Part shown: one piece after another, positions 42,302 to 61,176 of the stretch
How the letters are laid out: every line of letters begins with the position of its first letter
How positions within the stretch are numbered: position 1 is the stretch's first letter
The notes under the pieces: model-generated
Told to the model about the DNA's origin: nothing
Databases searched by the model: none
What the model saw: only the letters and a program-made list of their open reading frames with translations
Translations under genes and position numbers: made by a program
Source of the DNA: Leclercia sp. S52
GTDB lineage: Bacteria; Pseudomonadota; Gammaproteobacteria; Enterobacterales; Enterobacteriaceae
Reading direction: 5' to 3'
DNA length: 64,000 nucleotides
NCBI RefSeq assembly: GCF_039727615.1
Contig: NZ_CP152474.1
Span: 2,170,001-2,234,000 of the forward strand

Positions 42302-42403
42302 ATGACTCAAGTACAACATGAAAGATCCACATCTGACCTGATCAAAGCCGCCGTCTCCGGCTGGCTGGGCACCGCGTTAGAATTCATGGATTTTCAGCGC
42401 TAA
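42302..42403 (+). pseudogene. ydfJ: MFS transporter YdfJ, truncated by the prophage
   Basis: The first 32 or so residues, MTQVQHERSTSDLIKAAVSG then WLGTALEFMDFQ, are the start of the YdfJ sugar-acid transporter. The next codons are prophage sequence and a stop. The remainder of the gene should be found on the far side of the prophage, outside the window. In E. coli K-12 the Qin prophage interrupts the same gene. Confidence 0.88.
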
Positions 42404-42432: not shown

Positions 42433-43716
42433 TTATGCAGCAGTCCTGTCGCTGTGGGGCATGGTTGGGGCAAAGTCGCTTAACTTTGAGCTCAGCATGG
42501 CGATCTGGTCCAGGTTGTTTTCCTCCATCCACTTCCCGTAAACCTGAAATACCATCTGGGCATCGGCATGCCCCATCTGGTTAGCAATGAAGTTCGGGTT
42601 TGCTCCTGCAGAAAGCGACCAGCACGCATAAGTGTGTCTCGACTGATACGATTTCCGATGGCGAAGGCCGGCTCTTTTCATCGCCGCATCCCACGAGTTC
42701 CCTATGGAGTTGATGGAGAAGTGCTTGCCGTAATTCCCGGCCCTCGCTGTCAGTGACGGCAGGAAGACAAACGTGCACTTATTGAACTCTTTCTTTCCGT
42801 ACTCCCTCAGCTTAACAGGTACGTTATGCTCCTGAGAGAGACGGGTCATTTCATACTGGCTTTTGAATGCCTCGAGGGCAGGCTCGATCAGGTGCACAAC
42901 CCGGTTGGTGCCGGCATTGGTTTTCGGAAGTGTGAAGATCCCTTTCTGCGTCAGGCTTCTTCTGACGGTGATTGTTCCCGCCTTCAAGTCCACATCCTCC
43001 CAGGCAAGTCCGCACAGTTCACCCGGCCGCAATCCGGTGTAAACGGCGATAGCCCACAGGTTCTTGCTTTGCTGATGGTGGCAGGCATCAATCAGGCGAG
43101 GGAACTCCTCCCGGGTGATTGGGTCAGGATCCGGGCGGGACTCTCGCAGAGGGGCCACACCGTTCATTGGTGACTTTGAAATGTAGCCATTTTCAACCGC
43201 AAACTGGAAGATACCGAACAACACGGTCATGTAGTTGTTCACAGTAACTGCGGATCGACCCCGTTTTGGAGTTTTATGTCCTTTCTTCATGACTTGGAAA
43301 CCGGTGAGCAATTCCTTCCGGACTTCCAGCATGCTCTCTTTGGTGATTGAAGAAAGAAGGGTGCCAGGCCCAATAATAGCCGTGACATTAGCAATGACTC
43401 GCCCATAAGTGTTGAGCGATGATTCAGCCACCTCCATCTCCTTCAGTGCAAGCCATCTCGCGGACAGCTCCCCGATTGTTACCTCTTGCCTTGCCTCCCC
43501 GAACCGCGCCAGGTTCTGGGAGGAGGGGAACTGCTGGGCATAGTTGAAGGTTCCTGTTTTGATGGCATAGCAGATCGACGTCCGTAACTCGCCGGCCACT
43601 TTTCTGTTTTTGGGGGTGTCAGCCACCCCCAGGCTTTCACGCACTCTGACCCCTTTGTAGATGAACCACAGCCTTAGCGTGCCGCCGTGGTTTTCCACTC
43701 CTGTTGGGTATTTCAT
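42433..43716 (-). CDS. int: Tyrosine recombinase (phage integrase)
   Basis: This 427-residue integrase has an N-terminal arm-binding domain (MKYPTGVENHGGTLRLWFIY), a SAM-like core-binding domain and a catalytic domain. The catalytic Arg is in AVYTGLRPGELCGLAW. The second box is SRHTYACWSLSAGANPNFIA (His-x-x-Tyr form), and the nucleophile Tyr is in MVFQVYGKWMEEN. It integrates and excises the prophage at ydfJ. It lies next to the attachment site and reads away from the prophage, as usual. The gene appears whole. Confidence 0.95.
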   Translation of the reverse strand: MKYPTGVENHGGTLRLWFIYKGVRVRESLGVADTPKNRKVAGELRTSICYAIKTGTFNYAQQFPSSQNLARFGEARQEVTIGELSARWLALKEMEVAESSLNTYGRVIANVTAIIGPGTLLSSITKESMLEVRKELLTGFQVMKKGHKTPKRGRSAVTVNNYMTVLFGIFQFAVENGYISKSPMNGVAPLRESRPDPDPITREEFPRLIDACHHQQSKNLWAIAVYTGLRPGELCGLAWEDVDLKAGTITVRRSLTQKGIFTLPKTNAGTNRVVHLIEPALEAFKSQYEMTRLSQEHNVPVKLREYGKKEFNKCTFVFLPSLTARAGNYGKHFSINSIGNSWDAAMKRAGLRHRKSYQSRHTYACWSLSAGANPNFIANQMGHADAQMVFQVYGKWMEENNLDQIAMLSSKLSDFAPTMPHSDRTAA

Positions 43717-44100: not shown

Positions 44101-44340
44101 TCAGGCAGCCTGCCCGGGTAAGGATCGCAGGCGGCGCATGCCGGTCATCGCCGTGGCCACGTAGCTCGCCTTGCGGTTCACCACCTCAACCCAGACCTTC
44201 ACGCCTTCCACCCGCACTGTGTACGTCTCTTTCATCCGGCTGCGCCCGTAGTTGCCGTAGCGCTCCTGATGAGCTGCCAGAGCGATATCGCATGCCTGCC
44301 GCGCGAGCGGTGACTGTGTGCTGCGGTTAATCAGTTTCAT
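44101..44340 (-). CDS. DUF4060 phage protein
   Basis: This is a 79-residue protein starting MKLINRSTQSPLARQACDIA and containing KETYTVRVEGVKVWVEV and SYVATAMTGMRRLRSLPG. The family occurs in the early left arm of enterobacterial lambdoid phages; the role is unknown. It is the last leftward gene before the early-region deletion: only 30 bases separate its start from the ninG fragment, which reads the other way. Confidence 0.82.
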   Translation of the reverse strand: MKLINRSTQSPLARQACDIALAAHQERYGNYGRSRMKETYTVRVEGVKVWVEVVNRKASYVATAMTGMRRLRSLPGQAA

Positions 44341-44371
44341 GCTGCACGCTCCGCCTGCTGCGATGCTGGGT

Positions 44372-44698
44372 TACCGAGATAGGCATCAGCCATGCATCAG
44401 TTGCGACCGCTATCATGAGGGGCAATACCACGCAGGACACTTCCGCACTACCGGCGCTAACCCGGAGCTGCGCTTCGACGAGGACAATTGCCATAAGCAG
44501 TGTTCGGCCTGCAACAACCACCTCTCCGGCAACCTGACGGCATACCGCCCGGCGCTGATCGCCAAAATCGGCCAGGCCCGCTTTGATGCCCTTATGGGCC
44601 CGCACGAATTACCGAAATGGAAGCGCGACGACTACATCCGGATCCGTGATGATTACCGCACAAAACTCAAAGACCTAAAACAGCAGGTGGCCGCATGA
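44372..44698 (+). pseudogene. ninG: ninG (Rap) fragment, N-terminus deleted
   Basis: The sequence from YRDRHQPCISCDRYHEG through GHFRTTGANPELRFDEDN and HKQCSACNNHLSGN to the end KLKDLKQQVAA is the C-terminal HNH-like part of NinG, the recombination protein of lambdoid nin regions. The Cys-rich N-terminal half (about 90 residues) is missing and DUF4060 lies directly upstream. It is a deletion scar: cI, cro, O, P and most nin genes are gone. A frame opens at 44318 but no phage start is retained. Confidence 0.85.
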
Positions 44699-44835
44699 AA
44701 CAAGAACTGATCGAATCGCTTCGCATGCGCTGGCTGCGCCTCCGCATTTATCGCCGCCCGGGAACGGTGCTGGTGGACTATCGCATCCTTCGTAACTTTA
44801 TTCGCATTTATCAGATGGCAGGAGCCACAGCATGA
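44695..44835 (+). CDS. ylcG: YlcG-family small phage protein
   Basis: This is a 46-residue basic protein, MKQELIESLRMRWLRLRIYR then RPGTVLVDYRILRNF. It matches the YlcG family, whose E. coli DLP12 member stands in the same place, before the late antiterminator. Its start overlaps the ninG stop (ATGA) and its stop overlaps the Q start (ATGA), so the three are coupled. The function is unknown. Confidence 0.82.
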   Translation: MKQELIESLRMRWLRLRIYRRPGTVLVDYRILRNFIRIYQMAGATA

Positions 44836-45663
44836 ACCTCGAAAACACCGTGAAATATCACTTCGCAAAGTCCACGATGATCAGCGACTCCCCGCGCACC
44901 ACTGCATCAGATTCTCTGACCGGTACGGACATCATGGCAGCCATGGGCATGACGCAGGAACGCGCGGCTATGGGGTACAGCGCTTTCCTCGGTAAGATGG
45001 GGATCGGCCATAACGACCGGGAGAGGGCGATCGCGCTGCTGACCGAATACGCGCTGACAAAATGCGATAAAGTTGCTGCGCTACGAAAGCTGAGCGACAG
45101 GGTTAAGCCGCTGGTGATGCGCCAGCTGGCCGCGTTCGCCTTTGAAGACTATTCGCGCAGCGCAGCCAGCGTTAAGCAGTGCGATTGCTGCGCGGGGCAG
45201 GGGTTTATCGAGGCTGACGTTTTCACTATGAAAACCAGCATGTCTGGGTGTGCAAAGGACATCATACAAAAATCCAAGAAATGGGGACTGAAAGTTATTC
45301 CCTCGCAGCATCAGAACCAGCGGCAGGTGAAAGAAGTTGCGCACGTTCTATGTGTGACCTGCCAAGGGAAGAAAGTTGTCAGCTGCGCCTGTAGTGATTG
45401 CCATGGGAGGGGGGGTGGCAGTGAATCAGGAACTCACGGAGGCGCAGGGCGTACCGGTGCTGGCGGCCTGTAAGCGCTGCAGTGGTCGCGGTTATGAGCG
45501 AATCCCTTCGACAGAGGCCCATGCAGCTGTTTGCCAGATTACTGATGCAATCAGCCTGGATACCTGGAAGAAGTCGGTTAAGCCGTTTTACGACCAGCTG
45601 ATCACGAAATTTGATATCGAAGAAGCCTGGGCAGAAGCGCAGCTCAAGCAGATAACACGATAA
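44832..45663 (+). pseudogene. Late antiterminator Q (phage 82 type), frameshifted
   Basis: The protein should have 276 residues. An N-terminal part (MGMTQERAAMGYSAFLGKMG) is followed by DnaJ-like zinc modules: CDCCAGQGF, CVTCQGKKVVSCACSDCHGRG and CKRCSGRG. The frame is lost at seven G (45409-45415); with six it reads HGRGVAVNQELTEAQG and ends AEAQLKQITR. Q loads RNA polymerase at the late promoter so that it reads through the terminator at 45762 into lysis and head genes. If truly broken, the late genes would be silent. Confidence 0.85.
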
Positions 45664-45920: not shown

Positions 45921-46355
45921 CTACCTAACGACCAGGACAGGGCATTTCGCGTGCCGTACAACAGCCGCAGCATTCGAACCTAGCAGATATGTTGATATAT
46001 CAGGTTTATGGGATGCAATAATGATTAAGTCAGCATTTATCATGTCTGCGAGCTTAAGGATCTGGTCTTTTGGTGAACCAGTTACGGCGTGAGTTAGTAT
46101 TTTTTCGTCAGGTATTCGGAATTTTTTAACAATTTCATCCAGCTTTGTTAAAGCAGCTTGCTGGAATTCTTTCAGGTCAGGCATTTCTGCTGAATACGCC
46201 AGGCCCAAGGCTGAATAATACGGAAGCGAAGGAATAACAGTAAGAAAATGGACTTTGGCTGTGTTGAGAGTTGCATGCGCCTGAACAAATGGAATCACTG
46301 TGTTTGTCAGGCTATCCTCGGAAATGTCAATGGGAACTAAAATAGAGTTATACAT
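45921..46355 (-). CDS. UspF-like universal stress protein (prophage cargo)
   Basis: This 144-residue cytosolic protein begins [20 protein letters not shown] and has [31 protein letters not shown] and [20 protein letters not shown], the nucleotide-binding ending of UspF/UspG. The ATG at 46355 has AGGAGGG just upstream. It is read against the late operon, between Q and the lysis genes, which is the usual place for cargo genes with their own promoter. It is slightly AT-richer than its neighbours. It may aid host survival under stress. Confidence 0.88.
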
Positions 46356-46514
46356 TTGACCCTCCTGTATGATTTTTGTACATGCCAAGGTTAGCCCCTC
46401 GGTTGCCCGAAAACAGAGAGCCAGATGCCAGAACGATGAAAAACCTGCGCTCAGAAAAGTGAAAATAAATTAATAACTATCTTTTATGGATTGTGCCGAG
46501 TATGGTGACCGTGT

Positions 46515-46613: not shown

Positions 46614-46879
46614 ATTTTTCGGCTCAATTCCTGCGCCGAATACCTGAGATAATCAGCCCACCAAAGCAATCCGAAACAGAACACCTCTTCACCCTGGCCA
46701 ATGCCGGAGCTTTTTTTATCGACATGCCAAAAAAAAGCGGGAAATGCGACATCGTCATTTCCCTGCAATCATTACCAACTTGTTTTAATTATATCCTCAT
46801 TGTTTATAATGTTAACTAGTGGTTAAATTCAAATCGGTTGTAACTGTTCAATATTTCGGAAAAACAAACAAATTTAAGA

Positions 46880-46902
46880 GGCTGCCTTTGGGCGGCCTTT
46901 TT
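46880..46902 (+). terminator. Terminator upstream of the lysis genes
   Basis: GGCTGCC and GGCGGCC form a 7-bp stem (one G-T pair) with a 4-nt loop, followed by five T. It lies about 105 bases before the holin gene; Q-modified polymerase would have to pass it. Confidence 0.65.
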
Positions 46903-47007
46903 CTCTTTCAGGCTCCCGGAAACCCCCATCAAGGTTTGTCGTTAATTCATCCGGAGAGCCTGATCCCCCTTAGAGCACAGCACCCGCGAACCAGCGAGGT
47001 GAGAGAC

Positions 47008-47343
47008 ATGAAAATGCACAACGACCCCCACTCCTGGACGGAGTTAATCAATCTGCTCCACGGCTGGTGGCGTGGTGAAACACCCATTGGCGCTGTGCTG
47101 CTGTCAGTAGTGATGGCAGTGCTGAGAATTGCCTACGGCGGCGGTGGCTGGAAAAAGATGCTGCTGGAAGGCCTGATGTGCGGCGCCATGACGTTAACAG
47201 CTGTATCCGCTCTGGATTACGTCAACCTTCCTCAATCCCTATCCATTGCAATCGGCGGGGCGCTGGGCTTTGTAGGCGTCGAGCAGGTCCGTTCCGTGGC
47301 AAACCGAGTTATCAATGTCCGCTTTGGTGGTGACACCAAGTAA
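47008..47343 (+). CDS. Phage holin
   Basis: This is a 111-residue membrane protein of the lysis-protein-S group (PF05106 type), with hydrophobic stretches at about residues 25-45, 55-72 and 78-95 and a charged N-terminus, MKMHNDPHSWTELINLL. It forms the membrane lesions that release the endolysin. The ATG at 47008 follows GAGGTGAGAGAC. The endolysin gene starts eight bases after its stop codon. Confidence 0.85.
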   Translation: MKMHNDPHSWTELINLLHGWWRGETPIGAVLLSVVMAVLRIAYGGGGWKKMLLEGLMCGAMTLTAVSALDYVNLPQSLSIAIGGALGFVGVEQVRSVANRVINVRFGGDTK

Positions 47344-47351
47344 GGAACCCT

Positions 47352-47966
47352 ATGAATCAGGCACAATTTCAGAAGGCGGCTGGGCTAAGCGCCGAATTAG
47401 CTGCGCGCTGGTATCCACATATCGACGCGGCAATGAAAGAATTCGGCATCACCGCAGTTAACGATCGGGCCATGTTCATCGCTCAGCTGGGCCACGAATC
47501 GGCAGGCTTTACCTCGCTGGAGGAGAACTTCAACTACTCGGTCGACGGCCTGAAGAAAACTTTCGGCAAGCGCCTGATATCGTATCAGTGCGAGATGCTG
47601 GGACGGGTTGATGGTAAGCAGACCGCCCGCCAGCCTCAAATCGCCAACTTGGTATACGGCGGACGCATGGGCAACATCGCTGAGGGCGACGGCTGGAAAT
47701 ATCGTGGCCGTGGCCTGCTGCAGATCACCGGACGTGAGAACTACACCAAATGCGCCACTGCCCTGAAGCTGGATCTGGTGAGCACGCCGGAGCTGCTGGA
47801 GCAGGAACGACACGCTGCTCGTTCAGCAGCTTGGTTCTTCGCGTTACGCGGTTGCCTGTTGTATTCCGGCGATATCGTTCGTGTCACGCAGATTATCAAC
47901 GGCGGTCAGAATGGACTGGCTGATCGTAAGGTGCGCTACAGTCGGGCGCAGGCGGCGCTGGCATGA
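47352..47966 (+). CDS. Endolysin, GH19 chitinase-like
   Basis: This 204-residue murein hydrolase is of the glycoside hydrolase 19 group. The catalytic Glu pair is in AQLGHESAGFTSLEENFNYS (Glu49 and Glu58), and GWKYRGRGLLQITGRENY forms the substrate cleft. No signal peptide or SAR helix is seen, so it depends on the holin. Its last codons overlap the Rz start (ATGA). Confidence 0.93.
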   Translation: MNQAQFQKAAGLSAELAARWYPHIDAAMKEFGITAVNDRAMFIAQLGHESAGFTSLEENFNYSVDGLKKTFGKRLISYQCEMLGRVDGKQTARQPQIANLVYGGRMGNIAEGDGWKYRGRGLLQITGRENYTKCATALKLDLVSTPELLEQERHAARSAAWFFALRGCLLYSGDIVRVTQIINGGQNGLADRKVRYSRAQAALA

Positions 47967-48427
47967 CGTTTAACTTGAAAACAATGGGCATTGGCCTGTT
48001 ACTGGTTACGCTGCTTGTGATGAGCAGGCTGGTTAGTTATTACCACGCCGAGTTTCAGAAAGAAGAACGACGCGCTGATGCTGCTGAGCAGAACCTGCGG
48101 CTGGCGAACGCCACCATCACCGACATGGAAACCCGTCAACGTAATGCCGCTGCGCTGGATGCCAAATACACCGGAGAACTTGCTGATGCAAAAGAAACCA
48201 TTGAGCGTTTGCATAGCGATGTCATTGCTGGCCGTAAGCGGCTGCAGCTCAACGCAAACTGTTCAGCTAACGGAACGACCAGCTCCAGCGGCATGGGCGA
48301 TGCTTCCAGCCCCCGACTTACTGACTCCGCTGAACGGGATTATTTCACCCTCAGAGAGCGAATCGTCACCATCAACGGGCAAGTGAACTATCTACAGGAT
48401 TATATCCGTATGCAGTGCCAGCAGTAG
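47963..48427 (+). CDS. Rz inner-membrane spanin
   Basis: This is a 154-residue type II membrane protein: an N-terminal helix (LKTMGIGLLLVTLLVMSRLV) and a periplasmic coiled coil (EFQKEERRADAAEQNLRLAN). It joins Rz1 to fuse the two membranes in the last step of lysis. The start overlaps the endolysin stop codon. Rz1 is nested in the +1 frame. Confidence 0.9.
   Translation: MTFNLKTMGIGLLLVTLLVMSRLVSYYHAEFQKEERRADAAEQNLRLANATITDMETRQRNAAALDAKYTGELADAKETIERLHSDVIAGRKRLQLNANCSANGTTSSSGMGDASSPRLTDSAERDYFTLRERIVTINGQVNYLQDYIRMQCQQ
48186..48386 (+). CDS. Rz1 outer-membrane spanin lipoprotein, nested in Rz
   Basis: This 66-residue lipoprotein is wholly inside Rz in another frame. MQKKPLSVCIAMSLLAVSGC is the signal with its lipobox Cys; the mature part is proline-rich (ERPAPAAWAMLPAPDLL), as in other Rz1 proteins. 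The nested layout is standard for lambdoid phages. Confidence 0.85.
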   Translation: MQKKPLSVCIAMSLLAVSGCSSTQTVQLTERPAPAAWAMLPAPDLLTPLNGIISPSESESSPSTGK

Positions 48428-49773: not shown

Positions 49774-50772
49774 ATGGCAAAACCGGACTGGGGAGCGTTG
49801 CAAGACCAGTTCCTCGCCGAGCATGCCAAAACGGGTATATCGCCGAAAGAGTGGTGTGAAGCGCAGGGACTGAACTACGCGACCGCACGTCGACATATCA
49901 AAAAGCCTTCTGCGCAAAGTGCGCAAAAACCTGCGCAGAAGAAAGTGCGCACTGCGCAGAAAGGTAAGTGCGCAGAAGAGCTGGTGGATGATGACGACTT
50001 GACGGCCCAGCAAAGACTTTTCGTCGCCGAATACCTCAAGGATGGTAATGCCACGCAGGCTGCTATCCGGGCGGGGTACAGCAAAAAGACAGCTGAGCAA
50101 ATCGGTCATCAGCTACTTAAGAAAACTTCAGTTGCGCAGGCTATTGCACAGCAGCAGAAAGCTTCCATAGAACGCACTCTCGGCAGCGCCGATGAAGTCC
50201 TCGCGCAGATGTGGCAACTGGCTACCTTCGATGCAAACCAGCTTTCGCAGTATCGCCGCGGCGCCTGCCGCTATTGCTGGGGCTTCGGTCATCACTACCA
50301 ATGGCGCGACGCTGTAGAGTTCGACGAGGCTCTCGCGAAGGTTGAAGGCAACGAACGAGCAAAACTCCCGGAAGACCCTGGCGGTTATGGCTATGACCAC
50401 AATCGCGAACCTAACCCTAACTGCCCACGCTGCAATGGCGACGGAATAGGGCAGCCATACTTCGCTGACACCCGAAAACTTCCCCCTGATGCAGCCCTGG
50501 CTTACTCCGGCGTGAAGCTAGGTAAGAATGGCGTAGAGATAACGGCCATAAGCCGTGAACGCATGTATGAAGCAGTGATGAAGCGCCTGGGACTGGCTGA
50601 CAGCGAGTTTGCACAGCGTCTGCAACAGATTGAAATTGAGCGTCGGCAGTTGGAGGTGGAGAAACTCCGCAAAGAGCTGGCGGCCGATCCTGATGATGAT
50701 GTTCCGGCACCAGTTGCAATCAACATTAACGTGGTAGACGCGAGGGTTCGTGATGATAGCACCGACGCTTAA
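49774..50772 (+). CDS. Terminase small subunit
   Basis: This 332-residue protein recognises phage DNA for packaging. Near residues 1-45 there is a helix-turn-helix-like segment (ISPKEWCEAQGLNYATARRH). Then comes the Terminase_2 pattern LTAQQRLFVAEYLKDGNATQ and AAIRAGYSKKTAEQIGHQLL, with a central Cys-rich stretch (CRYCWG, CPRCNGDG) that may bind zinc. The C-terminus overlaps the large subunit gene. Within its own coding sequence it holds six TGCGCA palindromes (49911-49974), a possible packaging site. Confidence 0.88.
   Translation: MAKPDWGALQDQFLAEHAKTGISPKEWCEAQGLNYATARRHIKKPSAQSAQKPAQKKVRTAQKGKCAEELVDDDDLTAQQRLFVAEYLKDGNATQAAIRAGYSKKTAEQIGHQLLKKTSVAQAIAQQQKASIERTLGSADEVLAQMWQLATFDANQLSQYRRGACRYCWGFGHHYQWRDAVEFDEALAKVEGNERAKLPEDPGGYGYDHNREPNPNCPRCNGDGIGQPYFADTRKLPPDAALAYSGVKLGKNGVEITAISRERMYEAVMKRLGLADSEFAQRLQQIEIERRQLEVEKLRKELAADPDDDVPAPVAININVVDARVRDDSTDA
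49911..49974. repeat. Cluster of six TGCGCA palindromes in terS (candidate pac site)
   Basis: TGCGCA occurs at 49911, 49920, 49932, 49946, 49953 and 49969. Packaging start sites of headful phages such as P22 lie inside the small terminase gene, so the cluster may be the recognition site. The coding result is an Ala-Gln-Lys-rich linker. Confidence 0.5.
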
Positions 50773-52054
50773 TGTCCCCCAGGCGCGTTTTCTCGCTATG
50801 CCGCATAAGTTTAAGGCCTATGTTGCCGGGTTCGGTTCTGGTAAGACGTGGGTTGGCTGCGGCGGCATCTGCAAGGGAATGTGGGAGTTCCCTAAAATCA
50901 ACCAAGGCTACTTCGCGCCGACCTATCCGCAGATCCGTGACATCTTCTACCCGACAGTGGAAGAGGTGGCTTTCGACTGGGGCATGAACGTCAAAATTAA
51001 CGAGGGGAACAAAGAGGTTCACTTCTACGCTGGGCGTCAGTTCCGCGGAACGACTATCTGCCGTTCGATGGAGAAGCCCGGCTCTATTGTCGGCTTCAAA
51101 ATCGGCAACGCGATGGTGGATGAACTGGACGTTATGGCTGCCGCAAAAGCGCAGCAGGCATGGCGAAAAATCATTGCTCGTATGCGCTACAAGGTTGACG
51201 GCCTTCGTAACGGCATCGATGTGACCACCACGCCAGAGGGCTTCAAGTTCGTCTACCAGCAGTTTGTTAAAGCTGTGCGCGATAAACCTGAACTGGCGAC
51301 GCTGTATGGCCTGATACAGGCCTCAACGTTCGATAATGAAGCGAACCTTCCCCACGACTACATTCCATCGCTGATGGACTCCTATCCACCAGAGCTGATT
51401 AAGGCTTATTTGCGTGGGAAGTTTACCAACCTGACCAGCGGCACCATCTATCATCAGTTCGATCGCCAGCTTAATGGCTGTACCGATGAGGAGCAGGCAG
51501 GCGAACCACTGTATATCGGCATGGACTTTAACGTTGGCAAGATGGCAGCCATCGTCCATGTGCTGCGCGACGGAGAACCGAGGGCTGTCAGGGAGCTGGT
51601 GAAGGTTTATGACACGCCAGCGATGATTAAGCGCATCCAGGAAGAGTTCTGGCGCTATGAGGGTGGACGTTACGTCGCCTCTCGTCAGATTTACATCTAT
51701 CCCGATGCTTCCGGCGATTCGCGCAAATCGAACAACGCCAGCGCCACGGATATCGCGCAGCTCAAACAGGCCGGATTTAGTGTGGTGGTGAATGCTGCCA
51801 ACCCGCCGGTGAAGGATCGCATTAACTCCATGAATGCCATGTTCTGCAACGGTAACGGCGAGCGCCGCTACAAAGTTAACGTGACCCGCTGCCCGGTATA
51901 TACCGACAGCCTTGAACAGCAGGTATGGGCGGCCAACGGCGAGCCGGATAAATCAGCCGACAACGATCACCCCAATGATGCTGGTGGGTATTACATCGTG
52001 AAGCAATTCCCGATCATCAAACCAACCGGCAAAGTCACCAAACTACGGATGTAA
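50753..52054 (+). CDS. Terminase large subunit
   Basis: This is the 433-residue packaging motor. Walker A is VAGFGSGKTW with Lys31, Walker B is NAMVDELDVM, and the C-terminal nuclease carries acidic residues in YIGMDFNVGK, IYPDASGDSRKS and DNDHPNDAGGYY. The ATG at 50753 has GAGGG upstream and overlaps the small subunit gene. It appears intact. Confidence 0.93.
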   Translation: MIAPTLNVPQARFLAMPHKFKAYVAGFGSGKTWVGCGGICKGMWEFPKINQGYFAPTYPQIRDIFYPTVEEVAFDWGMNVKINEGNKEVHFYAGRQFRGTTICRSMEKPGSIVGFKIGNAMVDELDVMAAAKAQQAWRKIIARMRYKVDGLRNGIDVTTTPEGFKFVYQQFVKAVRDKPELATLYGLIQASTFDNEANLPHDYIPSLMDSYPPELIKAYLRGKFTNLTSGTIYHQFDRQLNGCTDEEQAGEPLYIGMDFNVGKMAAIVHVLRDGEPRAVRELVKVYDTPAMIKRIQEEFWRYEGGRYVASRQIYIYPDASGDSRKSNNASATDIAQLKQAGFSVVVNAANPPVKDRINSMNAMFCNGNGERRYKVNVTRCPVYTDSLEQQVWAANGEPDKSADNDHPNDAGGYYIVKQFPIIKPTGKVTKLRM

Positions 52055-52057
52055 ACC

Positions 52058-53461
52058 ATGCCCGATATCTCAACCCCCAATCTGGACTATGGGAACATGG
52101 TGCAGGCGTGGGACATCAACGACGCCCTGATGGGCGGTACACTGTATATGCGCCAGCTTGGTGAGGCTTATCTGCCACGCTGGCCGAAAGAAGACAAAGA
52201 GGACTACAAAAAGCGCCTGGCTGTGGCCACGCTTCTTCCCGCCTACGAAGAGACCATCAACCAGAACGTTGGCCGCGTGTTCGCTGAGCCGATCCAACTG
52301 GGCGAGAACGTCCCGGATGCGCTGCGCGAATTTGCGAGGAACGTGGATCTTGAAGGCAGTCGCCTCGATGTCTGGGCGCAGGCGTTCTTCAGCCTGGCGA
52401 TGCAGTACGGTCTGTCCCATGCGCTGGTGGACTATCCCCGGATCGACGCCGAGCAAGTGAAGACCAAAGCCGACGAAAAGGCTACAGGCGCGCGCCCGTA
52501 CGTGACGATGCTGAATCCCCGCCAGGTGATCGGCTGGAAGTCAAAAATGATGGGCGGCAAGGTTGCGCTCACCGAGTTGCGCATCAAAGAGGTTGTGGTC
52601 GAAGACGGTGACGACTTCGGTCAGACGAAAGTCGAACAAATTCGCTACCTGACACCCGGGAAAGTGCAGATTTACCGCAAGGCTACTGGCACCGATGGTC
52701 AAGTGAACTGGGCGCTGCATGAAGAGTGGCAGACCTCCCGCCGAGATATCACTCTGGTCACGCTCTACACCAAGCGCACCGGCTTTATGTGCGGCTCACC
52801 GCCGCTGCTCAACATGGCGCTGCTGAACGTTAAGCACTGGCAGAGCCAGAGCGAGCAGGACAACATTCTGCACGTCGCCAGGGTGCCGCTGCTGACAGTG
52901 TTTGGCCTGGAGGATGGCGAGGAACTTGTCATTGGATCTTCTTCTGCCACGAAGTTTAACGATCGGCAGATGCAGGGGCTCGAATACGTCGAGCACACCG
53001 GCTCCTCTATCGGCGCTGGCAAAGAGTCACTGACTGACCTGGTGGAGCAGATGCGCCAGGCGGGCGCGAAGCTGCTGCGCACCGACAATACCTCGACCAA
53101 GTCTGTTGACCAGACCTCAGAAGAGAAGATGCAGGAGCAGTCCCCGCTCTACACCATGGCAACCAGCCTGGAAGATGCGATCGACAACATCCTGCAAATC
53201 ATGGCCGAATATATCGGGGAGTCAGAGGGCGGCAATGTTGACGTGCGAACCGAGCTGGATGTTGAGTCGAAAGAGTTCAACCCGCCGGCGGCGCTGGTAA
53301 TTCAGTCACTCCGTCAGGGTGGCGATCTTCGCCGTATTGACGCGATTAAGGCGCTGCAAAAGCTCAACCTGATTGACGCTGACGCAGATCCCGATGTGGT
53401 GCTGAGCGAACTGCTGGCTGAATCAGCTTCGCTGAATGAACCGCCGCCTGGCGAGGTGTGA
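52058..53461 (+). CDS. Portal protein (DUF4055)
   Basis: This is a 467-residue protein of the DUF4055 portal family: NDALMGGTLYMRQLGEAYLP, KRLAVATLLPAYEETINQNV and GARPYVTMLNPRQVIGWKSK. A ring of twelve such subunits forms the DNA gate of the capsid. It starts three bases after the terminase gene and is followed by the head/tail chimera. It is intact, but useless without a capsid gene. Confidence 0.88.
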   Translation: MPDISTPNLDYGNMVQAWDINDALMGGTLYMRQLGEAYLPRWPKEDKEDYKKRLAVATLLPAYEETINQNVGRVFAEPIQLGENVPDALREFARNVDLEGSRLDVWAQAFFSLAMQYGLSHALVDYPRIDAEQVKTKADEKATGARPYVTMLNPRQVIGWKSKMMGGKVALTELRIKEVVVEDGDDFGQTKVEQIRYLTPGKVQIYRKATGTDGQVNWALHEEWQTSRRDITLVTLYTKRTGFMCGSPPLLNMALLNVKHWQSQSEQDNILHVARVPLLTVFGLEDGEELVIGSSSATKFNDRQMQGLEYVEHTGSSIGAGKESLTDLVEQMRQAGAKLLRTDNTSTKSVDQTSEEKMQEQSPLYTMATSLEDAIDNILQIMAEYIGESEGGNVDVRTELDVESKEFNPPAALVIQSLRQGGDLRRIDAIKALQKLNLIDADADPDVVLSELLAESASLNEPPPGEV

Positions 53462-53462
53462 T

Positions 53463-56400
53463 ATGACCCGGTCCGTTAACGATCGCCTGCAGGATGAGAC
53501 TATAGCGCATGGCCTGTATGTGACCCGCTACGGTAACGGCGTCGCCCGGCGCATGGTAACGCTGCTGAGTAAAATGGATGCTGACCTGGCGGCCAGGCTG
53601 CTGGTGCTGCTGGACGGCAAGCGCGCGGATACCTACAGTGCCCGCCGCCTGGCTTCTCTGCTGGCTGGCGTACGCGACCTGAACCAACAGGCCTACGAAC
53701 CGGTCATTGATGCGCTGGCGCGGGAACTTACGCGCTACGTTGAATATGAGGCCGGGAAGCCAACGTATTCCAGCGGCAGCGAAAAGACACGATTCTCGAG
53801 CGCGCTGATTAACTTCAGCGACCCGGATAACCATTATCAGGACCGCACCACCGCGGTAATGTTTCCTGAGCTGGTGAAGCAGTTCAAATTCAAGCAGACG
53901 CAGCTGACGGCAATCGGGTGCACGCGCGAGAGCGAGGCGCAGCGCCGCGGCGGGTGGGCGGTTTATTCTAATTCACTGGACCGTATCATTACGCTGCAGA
54001 CCGGGCTGGATGGCTTCGCCTATGTCCCTGGCACCGTATTTGCCTTCGCTGATGAGCGCGTTTCCGGGCGTGTTTATGGTGGCCGCCTCACGGACTATAA
54101 CGCCGGGCTTAAAGCGGTAACAACCGATCGCGGTACCAGCGCTGTCGCGGGTGACACACTGATGATCCGCACCCAGGGCGGCATTGTGGAAAGCCGGGTT
54201 ATACAGGCGGTCAACGGCACGCAGCTGATCGTGGCCACTCCGTTCACAGCAGCGCCAGCGCCAAACGCCGTATTCGTTATCGATGCCGGGCAGCTGCGCC
54301 TGCAGTATTTTCGTGTCACGAATCTGACCTTCAACGATGAAGAGAACACCTATTCCATTACCGGCGCGGAATACAATGCATCGAAGTATGATGCCGTCGA
54401 CCACAATGCGCGCCTCGATATCCCGCCGATCAGCCTCATCCCCACGGGAGTTGTATCACAGCCCGGCAATATCGTGGTATCGAGTTACGAGTCGGTGCGC
54501 CAGGGCCAGCGCATAGCGACGCTGACTGCATCCTGGGATGTTCCGCTCGATAAAGCCGGTAAGCCGCAGGCCGATGTGATCGCCTATCAGGCTCAATGGC
54601 GCCGGAACGATAGCGAGTGGGTAAACGTCCCTCAGACTGGCCTTCGCAACATTGAGGTACCGGGCATTTTTGAAGGTGATTACCTGGTGCGAGTCCGGGC
54701 GATAAACTCAGGCGGGGCGTCCAGCCTGTGGGCAACGTCAACGCTGACACACCTCAAAGGCCGGGTGGGCGATGTTCCAAAGCCAGTTAATTTCCGTACC
54801 ACGCCGTTGCTCTGGGGGGGTGCAGCTGGATTGGGATTTCCCTGCCGGCACTGGTGATACGCTGCAGACAGAAATTCAGTATTCCACGGTATCAACCGGC
54901 GCGAACCCGATGCTGCTGGCTGGCGTCCCGTATCCCCAGCAAATCTACCAGCAGCTTGGGCTAAAGGCAGGGGTAGGTTTCTGGTATCGGGCGCGGCTGG
55001 TGGATCGCACCGGCAACAAGTCGGCCTGGACTGACTTCATTCAGGGCAGCAGCAGCTCAACCGCCGCAGATTACCTGGTTGATATCGATAATCAGATTAA
55101 GCAGACCGACGCCTATAAGGACCTTGTTTCGGAAATTACGGATCTGGGTGACGATATCCAGTCAGCGCGCGACGACATCACCGCAGTTACGACAGAGTCG
55201 GCGGCGACTAAAACGGGCCTGGCGCAGGAAGTCACGGACCGTAAGAAAGCCATCACCGACGAGGCTACGGCGCGGGGGCAGGCGCTGCTGAACGAGAAGA
55301 ACGAGCGCGTCGCGGATATCAGCAATGTCAACCAGACGATTCAGAGCAGCACCGAATCGCTGGCGCAGCAGATCGCGCAGGTGTCCGCAGGTACCGGCTC
55401 GCAGTTCGACCCGGCCAAAATCTGGTATTTCGATTCGACAGCAGAAGGCTGGACCGGTAACGGCACGCCGACCATTGTTGATGGCTGGCTCCGCCCGGCT
55501 AACCATGCCTCAGATCCGTACGTTACGTCTCCCGGCTCGCTGGCCATTACAGCAGCTGCGTATCGCTTCCTGAAGCTGCGCATCAAGAAAGTTGGTTCGC
55601 CTGCATGGACAGGGGAAATCCGCTGGCGCAACACGGCTGGTTTCAACGACACCAACCGGTTCGCAGTGGCCGAGCCTGCTTATAACTCTGACGGCGTCGC
55701 CACTCTTGAATGCGACGATATCCCATGGCTGGCTGATACCACGATTAACCAAATCCGCCTGGACCTGTCCAGCAAACAGGACGCGACAAACTATTACCTG
55801 ATTGACTGGGTGGCGGTCGGACGGCCAACACCGGGTGCCGGGATGGCGGCGCTGCAGCAGGAGACGACAGCCCGTGTCACTGGCGACCAGGCGGAAGCCA
55901 CGGCGCGCGAGACGCTGGCGACTCAGATCCGGGGCGGCTATGCCGGTGACGACCCGTCAAAACTGGCATCGGGTCTGCTGTACACCGAACGCCAGGCGCG
56001 CATCACGGCGCAGGAAGCGGAGGTGACAGAGCGGAAGAAACTGGAATCGACCGTTAACACTAACCAGGCATCTGTAACGCAGGAGCTGGCTACGCTGACA
56101 ACTGAGCAGGAGGCTCAGGCCACCACGCTTTCCGGGCTGCAGACCACCGTTGGCAAAAACACCGGTGATATTACACGCATCGATAAAACGGTCGCTGATA
56201 ACAACAAGGCGCAGACCACCGCCCTGGCTGCGGTTAAGGCCACCACTGACCAGAACACGGCGGACATCAGTACGGAAACCACGGCCCGTACGGATGGTGA
56301 CAGCGCGCTGGGCCGCCGTATCGACAGCCTGAAGGTTGACGTGGACGGTAACACGGCCAGCCGGGACGCCGGTATTGTTGGCAACGTCACCAATGCGCTC

Positions 56401-57132
56401 GCCAACTTCACAGCGTTCTCGGATCAGCGCGTGACGTTTGCCGTTGGCGAAACGAAAACGATGGCCGAGATCACAGACGTCCGGAAAACCGCGGCGGATG
56501 CAACCAGTGCAGTGGCGGAGCAGGTCACCACGCTTAAGTCCACGGTAGAGCAAAACGGCCAGACCAACGCTGCAGCCATTACGCGCATTGATCGAACGGT
56601 TGCAGATCTGGAGAGCGCAACGGTGACAAGCATTCAGCAGGTGACGGCGTCTATTGGGCAAACCAACGCCAATGTCCAGACGACCAGCCAGGCTGTTGCA
56701 GATATCAATGGTAAGCTGAGCGCGCAGTGGGGCGTTAAAGTCCAGGTAGAGGCGAACGGCGTTAAACGCATCGCGGGTATCCAGCTGGGCATTGATGCCG
56801 CAGGCTCCTCTAACTTCCTCGTCAGCGCCGACACGTTTGCGGTTTATAACCCGACGACCACCGGGCAGGAACTGGTGTTTGCCGCCACCGGCGGGCAGCT
56901 GTTTTTGCGCTCGGTGTTCATCCAGGACGGGTCTATCGATAACGCCAAGATCGGTAACTTCATTCAGTCGGTCAATTATGTAGCAGGTTCTGCCGGGTGG
57001 CGGCTGGATAAGGGGGGCACGCTTGAAATGAACGGGAGCACTGGTGGCGGTCAGCTTAAAATCAATGCGGACAGGATTGTATTTTATGACGCCGCTAACA
57101 GGCCCCTGGTGGTAATGGGCAAACCGTTATGA
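53463..57132 (+). pseudogene. Head-protein/tail-tip J chimera created by deletion, also frameshifted
   Basis: Residues 1 to about 98 (MTRSVNDRLQDETIAHGLYV to RYVEYEAG) are the N-terminus of an SPP1 gp7-type minor head protein. From about residue 100 (TYSSGSEKTRF, GCTRESEAQRRGGWAVYSNS, RIITLQTGLDGFAYVPGTVF) the sequence is the C-terminal half of the host-specificity protein J, with fibronectin-like domains and a long coiled region ending LVVMGKPL. The in-frame joint is near 53757. A second fault, seven G at 54814-54820 (six would give LLWGVQLDWDF), splits the J part. About 1222 residues after repair. The head, neck, tail tube and tape measure genes should have stood at the joint. Confidence 0.85.
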
Positions 57133-58091
57133 TGCAGATGTTTGTTGAGGGTACCGGCTTTGATGCGACCAACTCTATGGGGTTCACCTATGTTATTGAT
57201 CACCTCGTCGTAAATGGTAGTGGCTCAAAAGCATATTCAGCTCCCGGTTTTGATCTTGCCGTTACGGCCATGAATAACACCCTGGCTAACAATGAGCAAA
57301 ATAACACGATCACCGCATCAGTCTCAGGCAGCACACTGACATGGAACACCACTGTGCCGCTGCGGCTGATGGTGACAGCAACAGCAAAAACAGGCGCTGA
57401 TACGACATACGCCGGGTTTGCTCTGTATCAGTACTCGTCTGGTGTGAAAACTGTAAAGCTCGCGCCTGACTTCACCCCTTTTGTGCTGGCGAACGTGATT
57501 GATATCGAGGCCGGTGCCAGAACTGTTGATACCGGTGTCCCTGTGGGAGCCGGTATTATGGTTTTCATGCGGAACCGCAATTACGAAGGAGGAGCACTTA
57601 GCCGATCCTTCTTTAACCAAATAGAAAGTGGGGGCACATATCAGCTGCAGTTCGCTAATGCGGGACAGAACCAGTATCCGACTAGGGCGTATATATTTGC
57701 AAAGGTATTGCCACCCATGCCTGCGGCAGGGTTCTACATGTACCGCGACGGGGTAATGGTGTGGCACAACAACTGCCTTCCCCTGGACGCAAAATTCATA
57801 ACCCAGTCTTATATGGAGTCAGATCGACCGCTGGCAGTAACCACGGGAATTACCAGTTTTATGTATATCCCCCAGGATCCGGCACACCCGAGCTATGGAT
57901 TTTCGAATTACACCTGCGCCGGTGCTGGTATCGCCAGTAATGGCCGATGGAGAACGAACAGCACGGAGGTTTATCAGTCAACGCTGGGAAGTGTAAGCCT
58001 GACAATAAAACCCTGGGTCGCGGGGTTGAGAGTTATGTATATCGACTGTGCCCCCTATGATAATTACTTCAGACAATCCCTTAAAAAGTAA
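57129..58091 (+). CDS. Phage tail-associated protein of unknown function
   Basis: This is a 320-residue protein starting at an ATG that overlaps the J stop. It begins MMQMFVEGTGFDATNSMGFT and has a beta-rich composition (Gly, Thr, Val), with aromatic-rich segments such as PAAGFYMYRDGVMVWHNN. No membrane segment or signal is seen. Place and composition suggest a tail-tip or receptor-binding accessory (perhaps the DUF6453 group). A strong terminator follows, so the tail fibre gene is a separate unit or needs antitermination. Confidence 0.7.
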   Translation: MMQMFVEGTGFDATNSMGFTYVIDHLVVNGSGSKAYSAPGFDLAVTAMNNTLANNEQNNTITASVSGSTLTWNTTVPLRLMVTATAKTGADTTYAGFALYQYSSGVKTVKLAPDFTPFVLANVIDIEAGARTVDTGVPVGAGIMVFMRNRNYEGGALSRSFFNQIESGGTYQLQFANAGQNQYPTRAYIFAKVLPPMPAAGFYMYRDGVMVWHNNCLPLDAKFITQSYMESDRPLAVTTGITSFMYIPQDPAHPSYGFSNYTCAGAGIASNGRWRTNSTEVYQSTLGSVSLTIKPWVAGLRVMYIDCAPYDNYFRQSLKK

Positions 58092-58120
58092 TCCCCTCTC
58101 TCAATTTCTCAGAACAACAT

Positions 58121-58143
58121 AACCCAGCTCCGGCTGGGTTTTT
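58121..58143 (+). terminator. Terminator between tail genes
   Basis: AACCCAGC-TCCG-GCTGGGTT with five T: a perfect 8-bp stem, 20 bases before the tail fibre start. Confidence 0.88.
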
Positions 58144-58162
58144 CATTTTAAGGACATCATGA

Positions 58163-59860
58163 ATGGCCACGATTGATGACGATTTAGCGAAATCCGTCAC
58201 AGAGGGTTTTCGCCAGGCGCAAATTGATATCGTTAACCAGGACCTGATTTTATCTGGGACCGGTGACGTCACCGTAACTCTGGCCGACGGTTCGAAAAAA
58301 ACCGGGCCCAGCTGGACGAAGCTGATCGCCGCTGCGAACGCGGCAGGAACCAGCGCTGCGGCAGCTGCAACGTCTGCGACAAATGCCAAAACGTCAGAGA
58401 CGAACGCGAATTCGTCCAAAACTGCTGCTGCAACGTCTGCGACAAATGCCAAAACGTCAGAGACGAACGCCAAGACCTCAGAAACCAACGCGAAAACCTC
58501 GGAGACGAACGCTAAGACCTCAGAAACCAACGCCAAAACCAGCGAAACGAACGCCGCCGCATCACTGGCCGCTGCGCAGAAGCTGACGTCTGTACCCTAT
58601 GAGGAGGCCCCGTTCCCTGATGTCTGGTTACCGCTCAATGATGACCTCCGCCTGCTGGCCGGATTTGCGCCTTACGACCGGTTGACTATTTCCGGGCAGA
58701 TACTTGAGCTTCCAACAAAGTCCGCGACCCTTACCCGATCAACCGTCGGGACTTATTACGATAAATCGGGAACGATGAAGTTAGCCGATATTAACGAACC
58801 TCGTTTTGAACGTGACGGTTTATTGATGGAGGGGCAGAGTACAAACTTATATACCTACTCCGAGCAGTGGGGGGCGGGTTCGCGAGTTACTACAACAAAC
58901 AACAGCGGTGACTCCCCTCGGGGCGATAAGACAATGGCGCTGATGGTGGAAGATACGGCAGGTAGTGAACATTATACCCAGGACCGCAATATTGTTTTAA
59001 TAGCTGGTACAACATATTGTTATTCGGTATTTGTTAAAGCTCATACAAACCCACGACTGTTATATCTACGTATTGCCTCTGGAAGTACGTCCGGTGTCTT
59101 CTTTGACCCGGTGGCAGGGGCGTTTGTTGGGAGTGGTGGAGTGGGGTCTCAATATGTTGATCGTGGGTTTGACGTCCTCAGTAATGGTGTATATCGCGTA
59201 TGGATGACATTTACCGCTGCGGCGAGTCAGAGTACCGTTTTCCGTCTGCAATTAGCGAAGGACGGTGTGACAGCAAGTTATACCGGGGATGGCGTGTCTG
59301 GTTTATATATTTGGGGGGCGCAACTGGAGGCTTTACCAAACGCCACTTCATATATTTCAACTGCCGCTGCTACTGTAACGCGCGGAAATGACCAGCTTGA
59401 TTTACAACCACAAGGTAATATCGGATACGGAATCGTTGGGGACACTTTCGCCCGTACCTTAGCGTTGGAATTTACAGTGGATAAATTCGCAGTACCCACA
59501 ACTGGCGTAGGTTATGTGGATTTTTTAGCAAATGTGGGAGCGCGTAACGATATTATTATTCGAGGTATTGCGGGCCAGTTAATTTCTTATCGGGGGTCGG
59601 GTGGGATAGCCATTGCAAATCTAACTTACCCATTTAACAAGAAAACATATGTACAGACTATTGATGTAGCCAACGATAATACAGTTACCGGTTACTTTGA
59701 TGGTAAAAGCACCACGCGCTCTGGGCAAGCGCCTACCGGTCCAACATACTCCGGCACATCCATAAGATTTAATGGAAATTCTTTCGCTGTATACCACATT
59801 CGAAACTTCCGTATATGGCATCGCCTGTTGACTCTTAACCAAATTAATGGACTCCGCTAA
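58163..59860 (+). CDS. Side tail fibre protein
   Basis: This is a 565-residue fibre. A conserved N-terminal tail-attachment part (DLILSGTGDVTVTLADGSKK) is followed by an Ala/Thr/Asn shaft with tandem copies of the seven-residue unit NAKTSET (about residues 70-135). A C-terminal lectin-like beta domain of about 400 residues follows (YDKSGTMKLADINEPRFERD, GLYIWGAQLEALPNATSYI). The C-terminal half is AT-richer than the shaft, a sign of exchange of the receptor-binding part. The ATG at 58163 is used because the nearby ATG at 58159 stops after five codons. Confidence 0.86.
   Translation: MATIDDDLAKSVTEGFRQAQIDIVNQDLILSGTGDVTVTLADGSKKTGPSWTKLIAAANAAGTSAAAAATSATNAKTSETNANSSKTAAATSATNAKTSETNAKTSETNAKTSETNAKTSETNAKTSETNAAASLAAAQKLTSVPYEEAPFPDVWLPLNDDLRLLAGFAPYDRLTISGQILELPTKSATLTRSTVGTYYDKSGTMKLADINEPRFERDGLLMEGQSTNLYTYSEQWGAGSRVTTTNNSGDSPRGDKTMALMVEDTAGSEHYTQDRNIVLIAGTTYCYSVFVKAHTNPRLLYLRIASGSTSGVFFDPVAGAFVGSGGVGSQYVDRGFDVLSNGVYRVWMTFTAAASQSTVFRLQLAKDGVTASYTGDGVSGLYIWGAQLEALPNATSYISTAAATVTRGNDQLDLQPQGNIGYGIVGDTFARTLALEFTVDKFAVPTTGVGYVDFLANVGARNDIIIRGIAGQLISYRGSGGIAIANLTYPFNKKTYVQTIDVANDNTVTGYFDGKSTTRSGQAPTGPTYSGTSIRFNGNSFAVYHIRNFRIWHRLLTLNQINGLR
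58368..58560 (+). repeat. 21-bp tandem repeats in the tail fibre shaft
   Basis: Units like ACGTCAGAGACGAACGCCAA recur every 21 bases and encode NAKTSET. The block CAACGTCTGCGACAAATGCC starts two 63-base copies (58370 and 58433). Slippage here would change shaft length without breaking the frame. Confidence 0.88.
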
Positions 59861-60162
59861 TGAGAGACTTATACCTGCGCTTTAATGACGCCGACGAAAT
59901 GCGCACGCAATTAATCTCGGCGGGGTTTATGGATGATGAGGAGCAGGGCGGTTTATATCACCCGGATATCAGCCTGGATGTAATCGGCGTTATTGCCGTC
60001 CCCACTGAAATTAAAAATGCAGGGGAGGAAAAGGAAGTTATTACGTTCGTCAATGAGCCAGGCTACCACGCCAACCTTCGTGTGATGAATGACGAACTGG
60101 ATTTATCATCCGTGCATGATTTCGTCGTTAACCCTAAAACACCGGCGCGCGTCTGGGCTTAA
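59860..60162 (+). CDS. Small phage tail-region protein, 100 residues
   Basis: This acidic soluble protein, MRDLYLRFNDADEMRTQLIS then AGFMDDEEQGG, has no known motif to me. Its start overlaps the stop of the fibre gene (TAATG). Similar small genes lie between fibre pieces in Klebsiella and Enterobacter prophages, so a chaperone or fibre-related role is a guess. Confidence 0.65.
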   Translation: MRDLYLRFNDADEMRTQLISAGFMDDEEQGGLYHPDISLDVIGVIAVPTEIKNAGEEKEVITFVNEPGYHANLRVMNDELDLSSVHDFVVNPKTPARVWA

Positions 60163-60171
60163 GGAAATAAT

Positions 60172-61176
60172 ATGACACTCAGAAATGATAATATCACCCT
60201 TACTGCGGCAGACGTAAAGGCGCTCAGCGCAGACGGTGGTACCGTAAATGGTAACGTGCGACTGTCCAACAAATTAGATAGTGCGACCGGAGCGACGGGT
60301 ATCTTATATCAAGAGGCCAAGAATTCTGGAGGCACAGTCCTGGCTTCATCCAGGGCATATGCTGAGCGGCGAGCGGACGGCTACAACTGGTATACCCTGG
60401 CAGTGGCAAACCCCGCCAATACAGCTGAGGCATATTATGGTTTTCGCAGTGATGGGTACTTCACTATAGACGGCAGGATAAGCTCAGGCCCACCGAAAGC
60501 TACGGGTTGGTGGGATAGCATGCAACCGAGCGTAGCCGGCTGCTACATGAACATGACCACTGATGGTGGCGGTGTCGGTGCTATCACCGCCATGACATGG
60601 GGATATAGACATAACGGAGGCTATGAATTGCGGTCCTCCTGGTCAAATGTTGGCAACGGAACAACAAGATGGGCCCACACTGTTTTAACACAATTCGGTG
60701 ATAACAGTTCTGCTGGCACTCGTTACTGGATGTTCGATCCGACTGGTGGGGACTTAAGCGTCAATGGCGGTGGCAGTTTTTCGGGTAATTATGTATTCCA
60801 GAAAGCGGCAACCTCCGATGCTACGTTAAAACACGACATTGCATATGACGACGGGAAAGCGTCCTACGATAACATCCGGAAGCTGAAACCCTGCACGTTC
60901 ATATATAACGGTGACTACTTCGAACGTGTGCGCCGAGGGATCATTGCTCAGGACGCTTTACGGGATATTGACCGTGAATATGTGAAGCTGGTTCCTGCAG
61001 CGCCTGAGTTCGACGAAGAGGGAAATCGTTGTGATAAAGATGACACCCTGGCTCTTGATAATAACGTCATCCAGATGGATACGGCACTGGCGCTGCATCA
61101 CGCGATTGCCAAAATCGAGACACTGACCATGCAGGTTGCGCAGCTGCAGTCTGAGGTTCAGGCGCTGAAAGCGTAA
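60172..61176 (+). CDS. Tail fibre/spike with S74 intramolecular chaperone
   Basis: This is a 334-residue fibre. The N-terminal part (TLTAADVKALSADGGTVNGN) attaches to other fibres and the middle is Gly-rich and beta-like. The C-terminal peptidase S74 chaperone domain starts about ATSDATLKHDIAYDDGKASY; it helps trimer folding and cuts itself off. The end is a coiled coil (TLTMQVAQLQSEVQALKA). AAGGAAATAAT precedes the ATG. Confidence 0.85.
   Translation: MTLRNDNITLTAADVKALSADGGTVNGNVRLSNKLDSATGATGILYQEAKNSGGTVLASSRAYAERRADGYNWYTLAVANPANTAEAYYGFRSDGYFTIDGRISSGPPKATGWWDSMQPSVAGCYMNMTTDGGGVGAITAMTWGYRHNGGYELRSSWSNVGNGTTRWAHTVLTQFGDNSSAGTRYWMFDPTGGDLSVNGGGSFSGNYVFQKAATSDATLKHDIAYDDGKASYDNIRKLKPCTFIYNGDYFERVRRGIIAQDALRDIDREYVKLVPAAPEFDEEGNRCDKDDTLALDNNVIQMDTALALHHAIAKIETLTMQVAQLQSEVQALKA

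What the first reader, a model, noticed from the sequence alone, without database searches (positions are those of the whole stretch)
53463..54500. In-frame fusion of a minor head protein to the tail-tip protein J
The first 98 or so residues belong to an SPP1 gp7-like head protein directly after the portal, and the rest belongs to the C-terminal half of J. All genes that normally stand between (capsid, head completion, tail tube, tape measure, tail tip) are gone. The joint keeps the reading frame across two unrelated proteins. It may be a decay scar, or selection may keep downstream fibre genes translated, as in a tail-fibre reservoir.
Basis: partly seen in the sequence, partly recalled or inferred. 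Interest (0 to 1): 0.75.

Follow-up and report, generated by a model that had tools for sequence, protein, structure and literature searches.

The report
Deletion scar in a decayed prophage
A dormant virus in a Leclercia-type chromosome lost about 15,000 bases of head and tail genes, and the two stumps happen to join in reading frame; it is most likely an ordinary decay scar, not a new protein design.

Summary
The joint is real. Residues 1-98 of the ORF at 53,463-54,857 are the start of a minor head protein (PHROG 241) and the rest is tail-tip protein J (PHROG 31). In 7 of 60 genus genomes the two pieces stand apart, 14.3-18.4 kb from each other in the same order. In G011, of the same species, the stretch between them holds capsid, connector, tail tube, tape measure and tail-tip genes, and the window's genome has no match to it. 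The joint is therefore a simple deletion with 0-3 bp shared at the breakpoint; one joint in three keeps the frame by chance. The fused frame does not run through J: a frameshift in a G run at 54,814-54,820 ends it at residue 464. The element is a prophage remnant of about 22.5 kb between att half-sites. A second scar, which truncates NinG, leaves about 16.7 kb less early region than in G011. The joint was seen in none of the other sequences searched. Verdict: ordinary prophage decay, probably recent.

The parts
42381..42398 (.). attL half-site (about 18 bp, imperfect); its partner attR lies at window-equivalent 64,819-64,836, just outside the window
   Evidence: comparison with the unoccupied site in G020
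42433..43716 (-). tyrosine integrase, 427 aa like its G011 counterpart
   Evidence: PF00589/PF12167, PHROG 1, length in G011
44341..44372 (.). second scar: early region about 16.7 kb shorter than in G011
   Evidence: matches to G011 and G052 end at 44,341; match to G054 begins at 44,372; size by subtraction
44372..44698 (+). truncated NinG/Rap remnant (3' part only)
   Evidence: ORF 44,318-44,698, residues 20-124 match PHROG 171 at profile positions 121-225 of 452
44832..45473 (+). Q-like antiterminator
   Evidence: PHROG 127
46819..48427 (+). holin, endolysin and Rz-like spanin
   Evidence: PHROGs 126, 181, 13
49774..52054 (+). ORF annotated as terminase small subunit in matching phages (49,774-50,772) and terminase large subunit (50,750-52,054)
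   Evidence: phage matches, PHROGs 10250 and 2, PF03237/PF17289
52058..53461 (+). portal protein, open along the whole profile match
   Evidence: PHROG 145 E 1.2e-147
53463..53756 (+). first 98 codons of the minor head protein (367 aa in G011); its PF04233 domain (residues 153-273 in G011) is lost
53754..53757 (.). deletion joint: 0 bp of shared sequence if the lost J Gly codon was like that of any of the six relatives compared, at most 3 bp otherwise
   Evidence: base-by-base comparison with seven head and six J relatives
53757..54857 (+). J fragment in frame with the head fragment, closed after a frameshift in the G run at 54,814-54,820
54772..57132 (+). remainder of J in another frame, with Phage_Tail_Tip domain
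   Evidence: PF09327, PHROG 2589
57129..61176 (+). post-J genes: membrane-associated-protein-like ORF, tail fibre ORFs, fibre with S74 chaperone
   Evidence: PHROGs, PF13884

Best explanation
This is a deletion scar. A lambdoid-type prophage, integrated at the same attachment site as its relatives in G011 and G052, lost one continuous stretch, probably of roughly 14-16 kb, from codon 98 of the minor head gene to about codon 388 of J, by illegitimate recombination (0-3 bp shared at the joint). The two stumps fell into the same frame by chance and make a 464-aa hybrid ORF. A separate loss took immunity, recombination and replication genes. Shown: both parent genes, their uncut order in relatives, no match to the cassette in this genome, both scars, the att sites and the closed frame. 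Inferred: the recombination route, the exact size lost, that the prophage cannot make particles, that the hybrid has no function, and that the deletion is recent compared with the divergence of the J copies.
For: Both halves occur apart, in the same order and on one strand, in 7 of the 60 genus genomes searched (own included): G036 14.3 kb, G011 14.9, G056 15.4, G037 15.5, G054 16.2, G008 16.6, G005 18.4. In G011 nine of the 16 ORFs of 90 aa or more between the halves were searched; they include major head protein, a scaffold-like match, head-tail adaptor, tail completion, major tail protein, tape measure, two minor tail proteins and tail assembly. That stretch has no match in the window's genome. 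The same query matches the source genome G011 and all three other control genomes, G036, G054 and, mostly in part, G052. The joint has 0-3 bp in common. Left flank and integrase region shared with G011, G052 and G056; right flank checked for G011 and G052; unoccupied site in G020. Second scar with truncated NinG; nine G011 proteins from that region include regulators, helicase loaders, exonuclease, RecT-like and NinB-like proteins. With the 241 bases around the joint, only the own genome matches across among 61 genus genomes. In public phages 2 records, plasmids 2 records and E. coli 12 of 5426 genomes match, each record with two separate places and none covering 80%. Joint pattern in 1 of 392 family genomes, the own one; only the own protein covers the whole query among the 120 homologues listed.
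Against: The hybrid frame is open, and the J part between joint and frameshift carries 17 private synonymous and 0 private nonsynonymous changes, which alone could be read as constraint on the hybrid. Portal, terminase, lysis and integrase ORFs remain open, so decay is not uniform. The own hybrid's 90% cluster counts 2 member sequences on 1 contig, so a second strain with it is not excluded. No collection of further strains of this species was available, and no sequencing reads.
Confidence: 0.94

Rival explanations
1. The joint is kept by selection because it lets ribosomes run from the head gene into J and on to the fibre genes, as a fibre reservoir.
For: The frame is kept at the joint; 0 private nonsynonymous changes in the first J piece; fibre ORFs downstream are open. 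The abstract of PMC7744054 reports tail fibre and integrase genes enriched in incomplete prophages.
Against: The frame closes at 54,857, before most of J. The next ORF has its own ATG. Seen in one genome only in the searches made. A one-in-three event needs no selection. Absence of nonsynonymous changes is also expected if J worked in a live phage for nearly all of that branch.
Confidence: 0.03
2. The joint is an assembly artefact.
For: No reads were available.
Against: One contig of 4.93 Mb, 99.96% complete. No repeat at the joint that would mislead an assembler: besides itself, the 3.7-kb region matches the genome only at query 2583-3507, far from the joint. The cassette has no match anywhere in the assembly.
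Confidence: 0.02
3. The element is a reduced satellite or helper-dependent element that uses another phage's head and tail, not a dead remnant.
For: Integrase, att half-sites, terminase, portal and lysis ORFs are kept open, and a second J-like stretch exists elsewhere in the genome.
Against: No replication or repressor gene found among the remnant's ORFs searched; J and NinG are broken; the joint has no second occurrence in the searches made, as a stable element would have.
Confidence: 0.02

Closest known systems
Cryptic (defective) lambdoid prophages with large internal deletions
   Same: att half-sites and integrase kept, large blocks of morphogenesis and early genes lost, fibre genes kept. 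The abstract of PMC7744054 reports replication, packaging and release genes preferentially lost and tail fibre, transposase and integrase genes enriched in incomplete prophages
   Different: here packaging (terminase, portal) and lysis ORFs remain, and the scar happens to be in frame
Prophage of G011 (contig length equals DERO01000006.1, Leclercia adecarboxylata UBA3338) at the same site
   Same: same flanks, integrase, terminase, portal, minor head, J; first J piece 92.8% identical in DNA
   Different: about 52 kb by coordinates, with head-tail cassette and early region in place and J as one 1636-aa ORF
Escherichia phage HK639
   Same: a portal/minor-head stretch 82% and a J stretch 78% identical in DNA
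   Different: the two stretches are separate genes about 16 kb apart in the record
Other J proteins joined in frame: P0028 (E. coli) and P0045 (Pseudomonas fluorescens)
   Same: J pieces joined in frame to a distant part of J or to a fibre-type end
   Different: other breakpoints and partners; origin by deletion is inferred, not tested

Membership tests
Cryptic/defective prophage | phage genes bounded by att sites at a chromosomal site that is empty in a relative | tested here: met
   attL/attR against the unoccupied site of G020
Cryptic/defective prophage | loss of genes needed for particle formation | tested here: met
   no match to the G011 capsid-to-tail-tip cassette; J split
Cryptic/defective prophage | not inducible to plaque-forming phage | not testable with these tools
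   needs the strain
   domain lies at residues 153-273 of the G011 protein and is missing from the hybrid
   residues 1-98
Tail tip protein J (PHROG 31) | N-terminal FNIII-A domain PF24801 and C-terminal PF09327 in one chain, as in G011 | tested here: not met
   the hybrid matches only part of PF13550; PF09327 is in another frame; PF24801 not found
Phage satellite | own replication/regulation genes and recurrence as a stable element | tested here: not met
   no replication gene among the ORFs searched; joint not found elsewhere
Tailocin | complete tail with tube and tape measure | tested here: not met
   no match to the tail tube and tape measure stretch of G011

The most novel reading that the evidence does not exclude
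The 464-aa hybrid is expressed and stable, and its J piece still binds a cell-surface or phage component, so that a chance deletion made a new host-useful protein, for example a tail-tip decoy.
Probability: 0.02. Interest if true: 0.5.

Novelty: new member of a known kind. Interest (0 to 1): 0.1.

Why it matters
It matters little by itself. It is a clean example, with the breakpoint known to within 3 bp and an uncut same-site relative, of how an ORF made of two unrelated phage proteins can arise by one deletion. Such ORFs can mislead annotation of 'novel fusions'.

Tried and rejected
Looking for the same joint elsewhere. A degenerate DNA pattern of the joint gave one match in viral contigs, in an unrelated reading frame, and in 392 family genomes only the own genome (exact pattern, so joints with other residues would be missed). 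The 241 bases around the joint matched across only in the own genome among 61 genus genomes. In phages (2 records), plasmids (2 records) and E. coli (12 of 5426 genomes) every matching record has two separate places and none covers 80%. The protein search lists 120 of 132 hits; only the own protein covers the whole query (only the 7997 candidates sharing most words were scored, and full-length J is too long to be a candidate; the own cluster counts 2 member sequences, and the second was not identified). A homologous-recombination origin was rejected because at most 3 bp are shared at the joint.

A programmed or phase-variable frameshift in J was considered. G052, with a more divergent J, has the same G run and also a split J. 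Of the 8 genomes whose letters were read at the site, 2 have the run (a ninth, G039, aligned but was not read at that place). An inherited lesion, a slippery tract and homopolymer sequencing errors cannot be told apart here.

The consensus scan of 52,000-58,200 found 2 promoter-like sites (shuffles 3.6) and 12 terminator-like sites (shuffles 6.1, sd 2.7); none spans the joint. In the substitution counts G056 and G037 were loaded but left out of the J comparison, G056 because its assembly is only 78% complete and its J frames look broken, and G037 as more divergent. The counts therefore rest on four relatives for the first J piece and three for the others. Literature: five searches (listed 6 of 6, 15 of 16, 14 of 14, 7 of 7 and 12 of 93 papers) showed no title or abstract start about this joint or a head-J fusion; beyond listings only the outlines with abstracts of PMC3945230 and PMC7744054 were seen. 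No structure prediction was run.

Full report
What is there. The window lies in a 4.93-Mb genome of one contig. A genome labelled same species, G011, has a contig of the same length (313,159) as DERO01000006.1, titled Leclercia adecarboxylata UBA3338. The host is therefore taken to be that species in the database's sense; the name is not certain, because G056, whose contig length equals LR590464.1 'Leclercia adecarboxylata NCTC13032', is labelled only same genus. The ORF at 53,463-54,857 encodes 464 aa. Residues 1-98 match PHROG 241 (head morphogenesis) and residues 98-452 match PHROG 31, central tail fibre J. The PF04233 domain of the minor head protein (residues 153-273 in G011) and J's PF24801 domain are not in the hybrid; of PF13550 only part is matched.

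Where the joint comes from. Searching 60 genomes of the genus (own included) with the ORF gave 22 with any match, many of them short matches to one J stretch. Seven hold both halves as separate places, head first and J later on the same strand, 14.3-18.4 kb apart: G036, G011, G056, G037, G054, G008 and G005. G052 and G030 gave only a long J match and G015 only a long head match. Phage HK639 has the same order with about 16 kb between. With the 241 bases around the joint, only the own genome of 61 matches across it. In phages 2 records, in plasmids 2 records and in E. coli 12 of 5426 genomes match, each record with two separate places, none covering 80% of the query. In G011 the stretch between the halves was sampled: nine of its 16 ORFs of 90 aa or more were searched and include a protein with a scaffold match, major head protein, head-tail adaptor, tail completion, major tail protein, tape measure, two minor tail proteins and tail assembly protein. 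This 14.7-kb stretch has no match in the own genome. As controls the same query finds G011 itself and, independently, G036, G054 and, mostly in part, G052.

The breakpoint. Compared base by base with seven head relatives and six J relatives, the window follows the head gene through codon 98 and J from the next codon. Both genes have a Gly codon there. None of the six J relatives has the window's third base, so 0 bp are shared if the lost J codon was like any of theirs, and 3 bp at most. That points to illegitimate rather than homologous recombination. With both genes on one strand, one joint in three keeps the frame.

The frame does not run on. About 1.06 kb after the joint, in a run of G at 54,814-54,820, the J frame is shifted. 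The hybrid stops at 54,857, and the remaining J sequence lies in an overlapping ORF of another frame, 54,772-57,132. Uninterrupted J copies exist in relatives, for instance G011. The run and a split J also occur in G052, 2 of the 8 genomes read at the site (several listed loci are one genome fetched more than once). An inherited lesion, a slippery tract and sequencing errors cannot be separated here. If the assembled sequence is right, the joint does not keep the fibre genes in one translated frame.

The setting. The element is a prophage remnant of about 22.5 kb between att half-sites at 42,381-42,398 and, just outside the window, 64,819-64,836. G020 has the unoccupied site. G011, G052 and G056 share left flank and integrase region, and for G011 and G052 the right flank was matched too. 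The G011 prophage is about 52 kb by the same coordinates. Besides the loss at the joint, the early region is about 16.7 kb shorter than in G011: the match to relatives ends at 44,341, resumes at 44,372 in G054 and at 44,682 in G011, and the ORF there is a NinG/Rap lacking its N-terminal part. Nine G011 proteins from the missing part were searched; they include two transcription regulators, two helicase-loader/replication proteins, an exonuclease, a RecT-like protein, a NinB-like protein and a DNA methyltransferase. Integrase, Q-like protein, lysis genes, terminases, portal and fibre ORFs remain.

Age. Private changes, given as synonymous/nonsynonymous, counted on chosen relatives. First J piece (own, G011, G036, G054, G052): own 17/0, others 3/2, 28/4, 13/1, 47/9. 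Later J piece (own, G011, G036, G052): own 35/16, others 38/42, 50/18, 49/26. Minor head piece (own, G011, G036, G054): own 7/4, others 17/4, 8/0, 6/2. Portal (same four): own 46/15, others 37/13, 22/6, 23/9. The own J thus looks like a gene that worked for nearly all of its branch, and the deletion looks recent. The count cannot tell this apart from selection acting on the hybrid; the closed frame, the lack of a second occurrence and the second scar make selection unlikely.

Uniqueness. Among the 120 homologues listed only the own protein covers the whole query; its cluster counts 2 member sequences on 1 contig and the second was not identified. The joint pattern occurs in 1 of 392 family genomes, the own one, and once in viral contigs in an unrelated frame. 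Other in-frame rearrangements of J exist in the protein database: P0028 joins J profile position about 850 to the C-terminal tail-tip domain, and P0045 joins J to a tail-fibre-type end. That they arose by deletion is inferred.

Compared with what is known. PMC7744054 (abstract seen) reports tail fibre, transposase and integrase genes enriched in incomplete prophages while replication, packaging and release genes are lost; this remnant fits in part, since packaging and lysis ORFs remain. PMC3945230 (abstract seen) reports mosaics between lambdoid phages and E. coli prophage remnants by relaxed homologous recombination, so fibre genes here could in principle be picked up by an infecting phage; that needs no selection on the joint. 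Conclusion: an ordinary deletion scar in a decayed prophage.

Noticed in passing
window 54,814-54,820; G052 locus L089 (also L007, L033): A G run in J that shifts the frame is present both here and in the more divergent J of G052; inherited lesion, slippery tract or homopolymer sequencing error cannot be told apart.
   Followed up: partly
window 44,341-44,698: A second large scar near the integrase leaves only the 3' part of a NinG/Rap gene.
   Followed up: partly
window 45,921-46,388 (-): A universal stress protein gene (PHROG 6929) on the opposite strand stands between the Q-like gene and the lysis genes of the remnant.
   Followed up: no
proteins P0089, P0097: Relatives of the minor head protein of 672-724 aa are listed with an intein-splicing domain (PF14890); in P0089 it follows the start of the PF04233 domain and scores below Pfam's cut-off.
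   Followed up: no
proteins P0028 and P0045: Other J proteins joined in frame to a distant part of J (E. coli) or to a DUF4376 fibre-type end (Pseudomonas fluorescens).
   Followed up: partly
own genome C1:1,900,807-1,901,731 (L002): A second place in the genome is 85% identical to a late part of this J (query 2583-3507 of 3667); its surroundings were not studied.
   Followed up: no
plasmid records NZ_CP129515.1 (Enterobacter asburiae) and NZ_CP091500.1 (Enterobacter cloacae complex): Two plasmid records carry relatives of both the minor head and the J stretch as separate places, so a phage of this kind may also exist as or on a plasmid.
   Followed up: no
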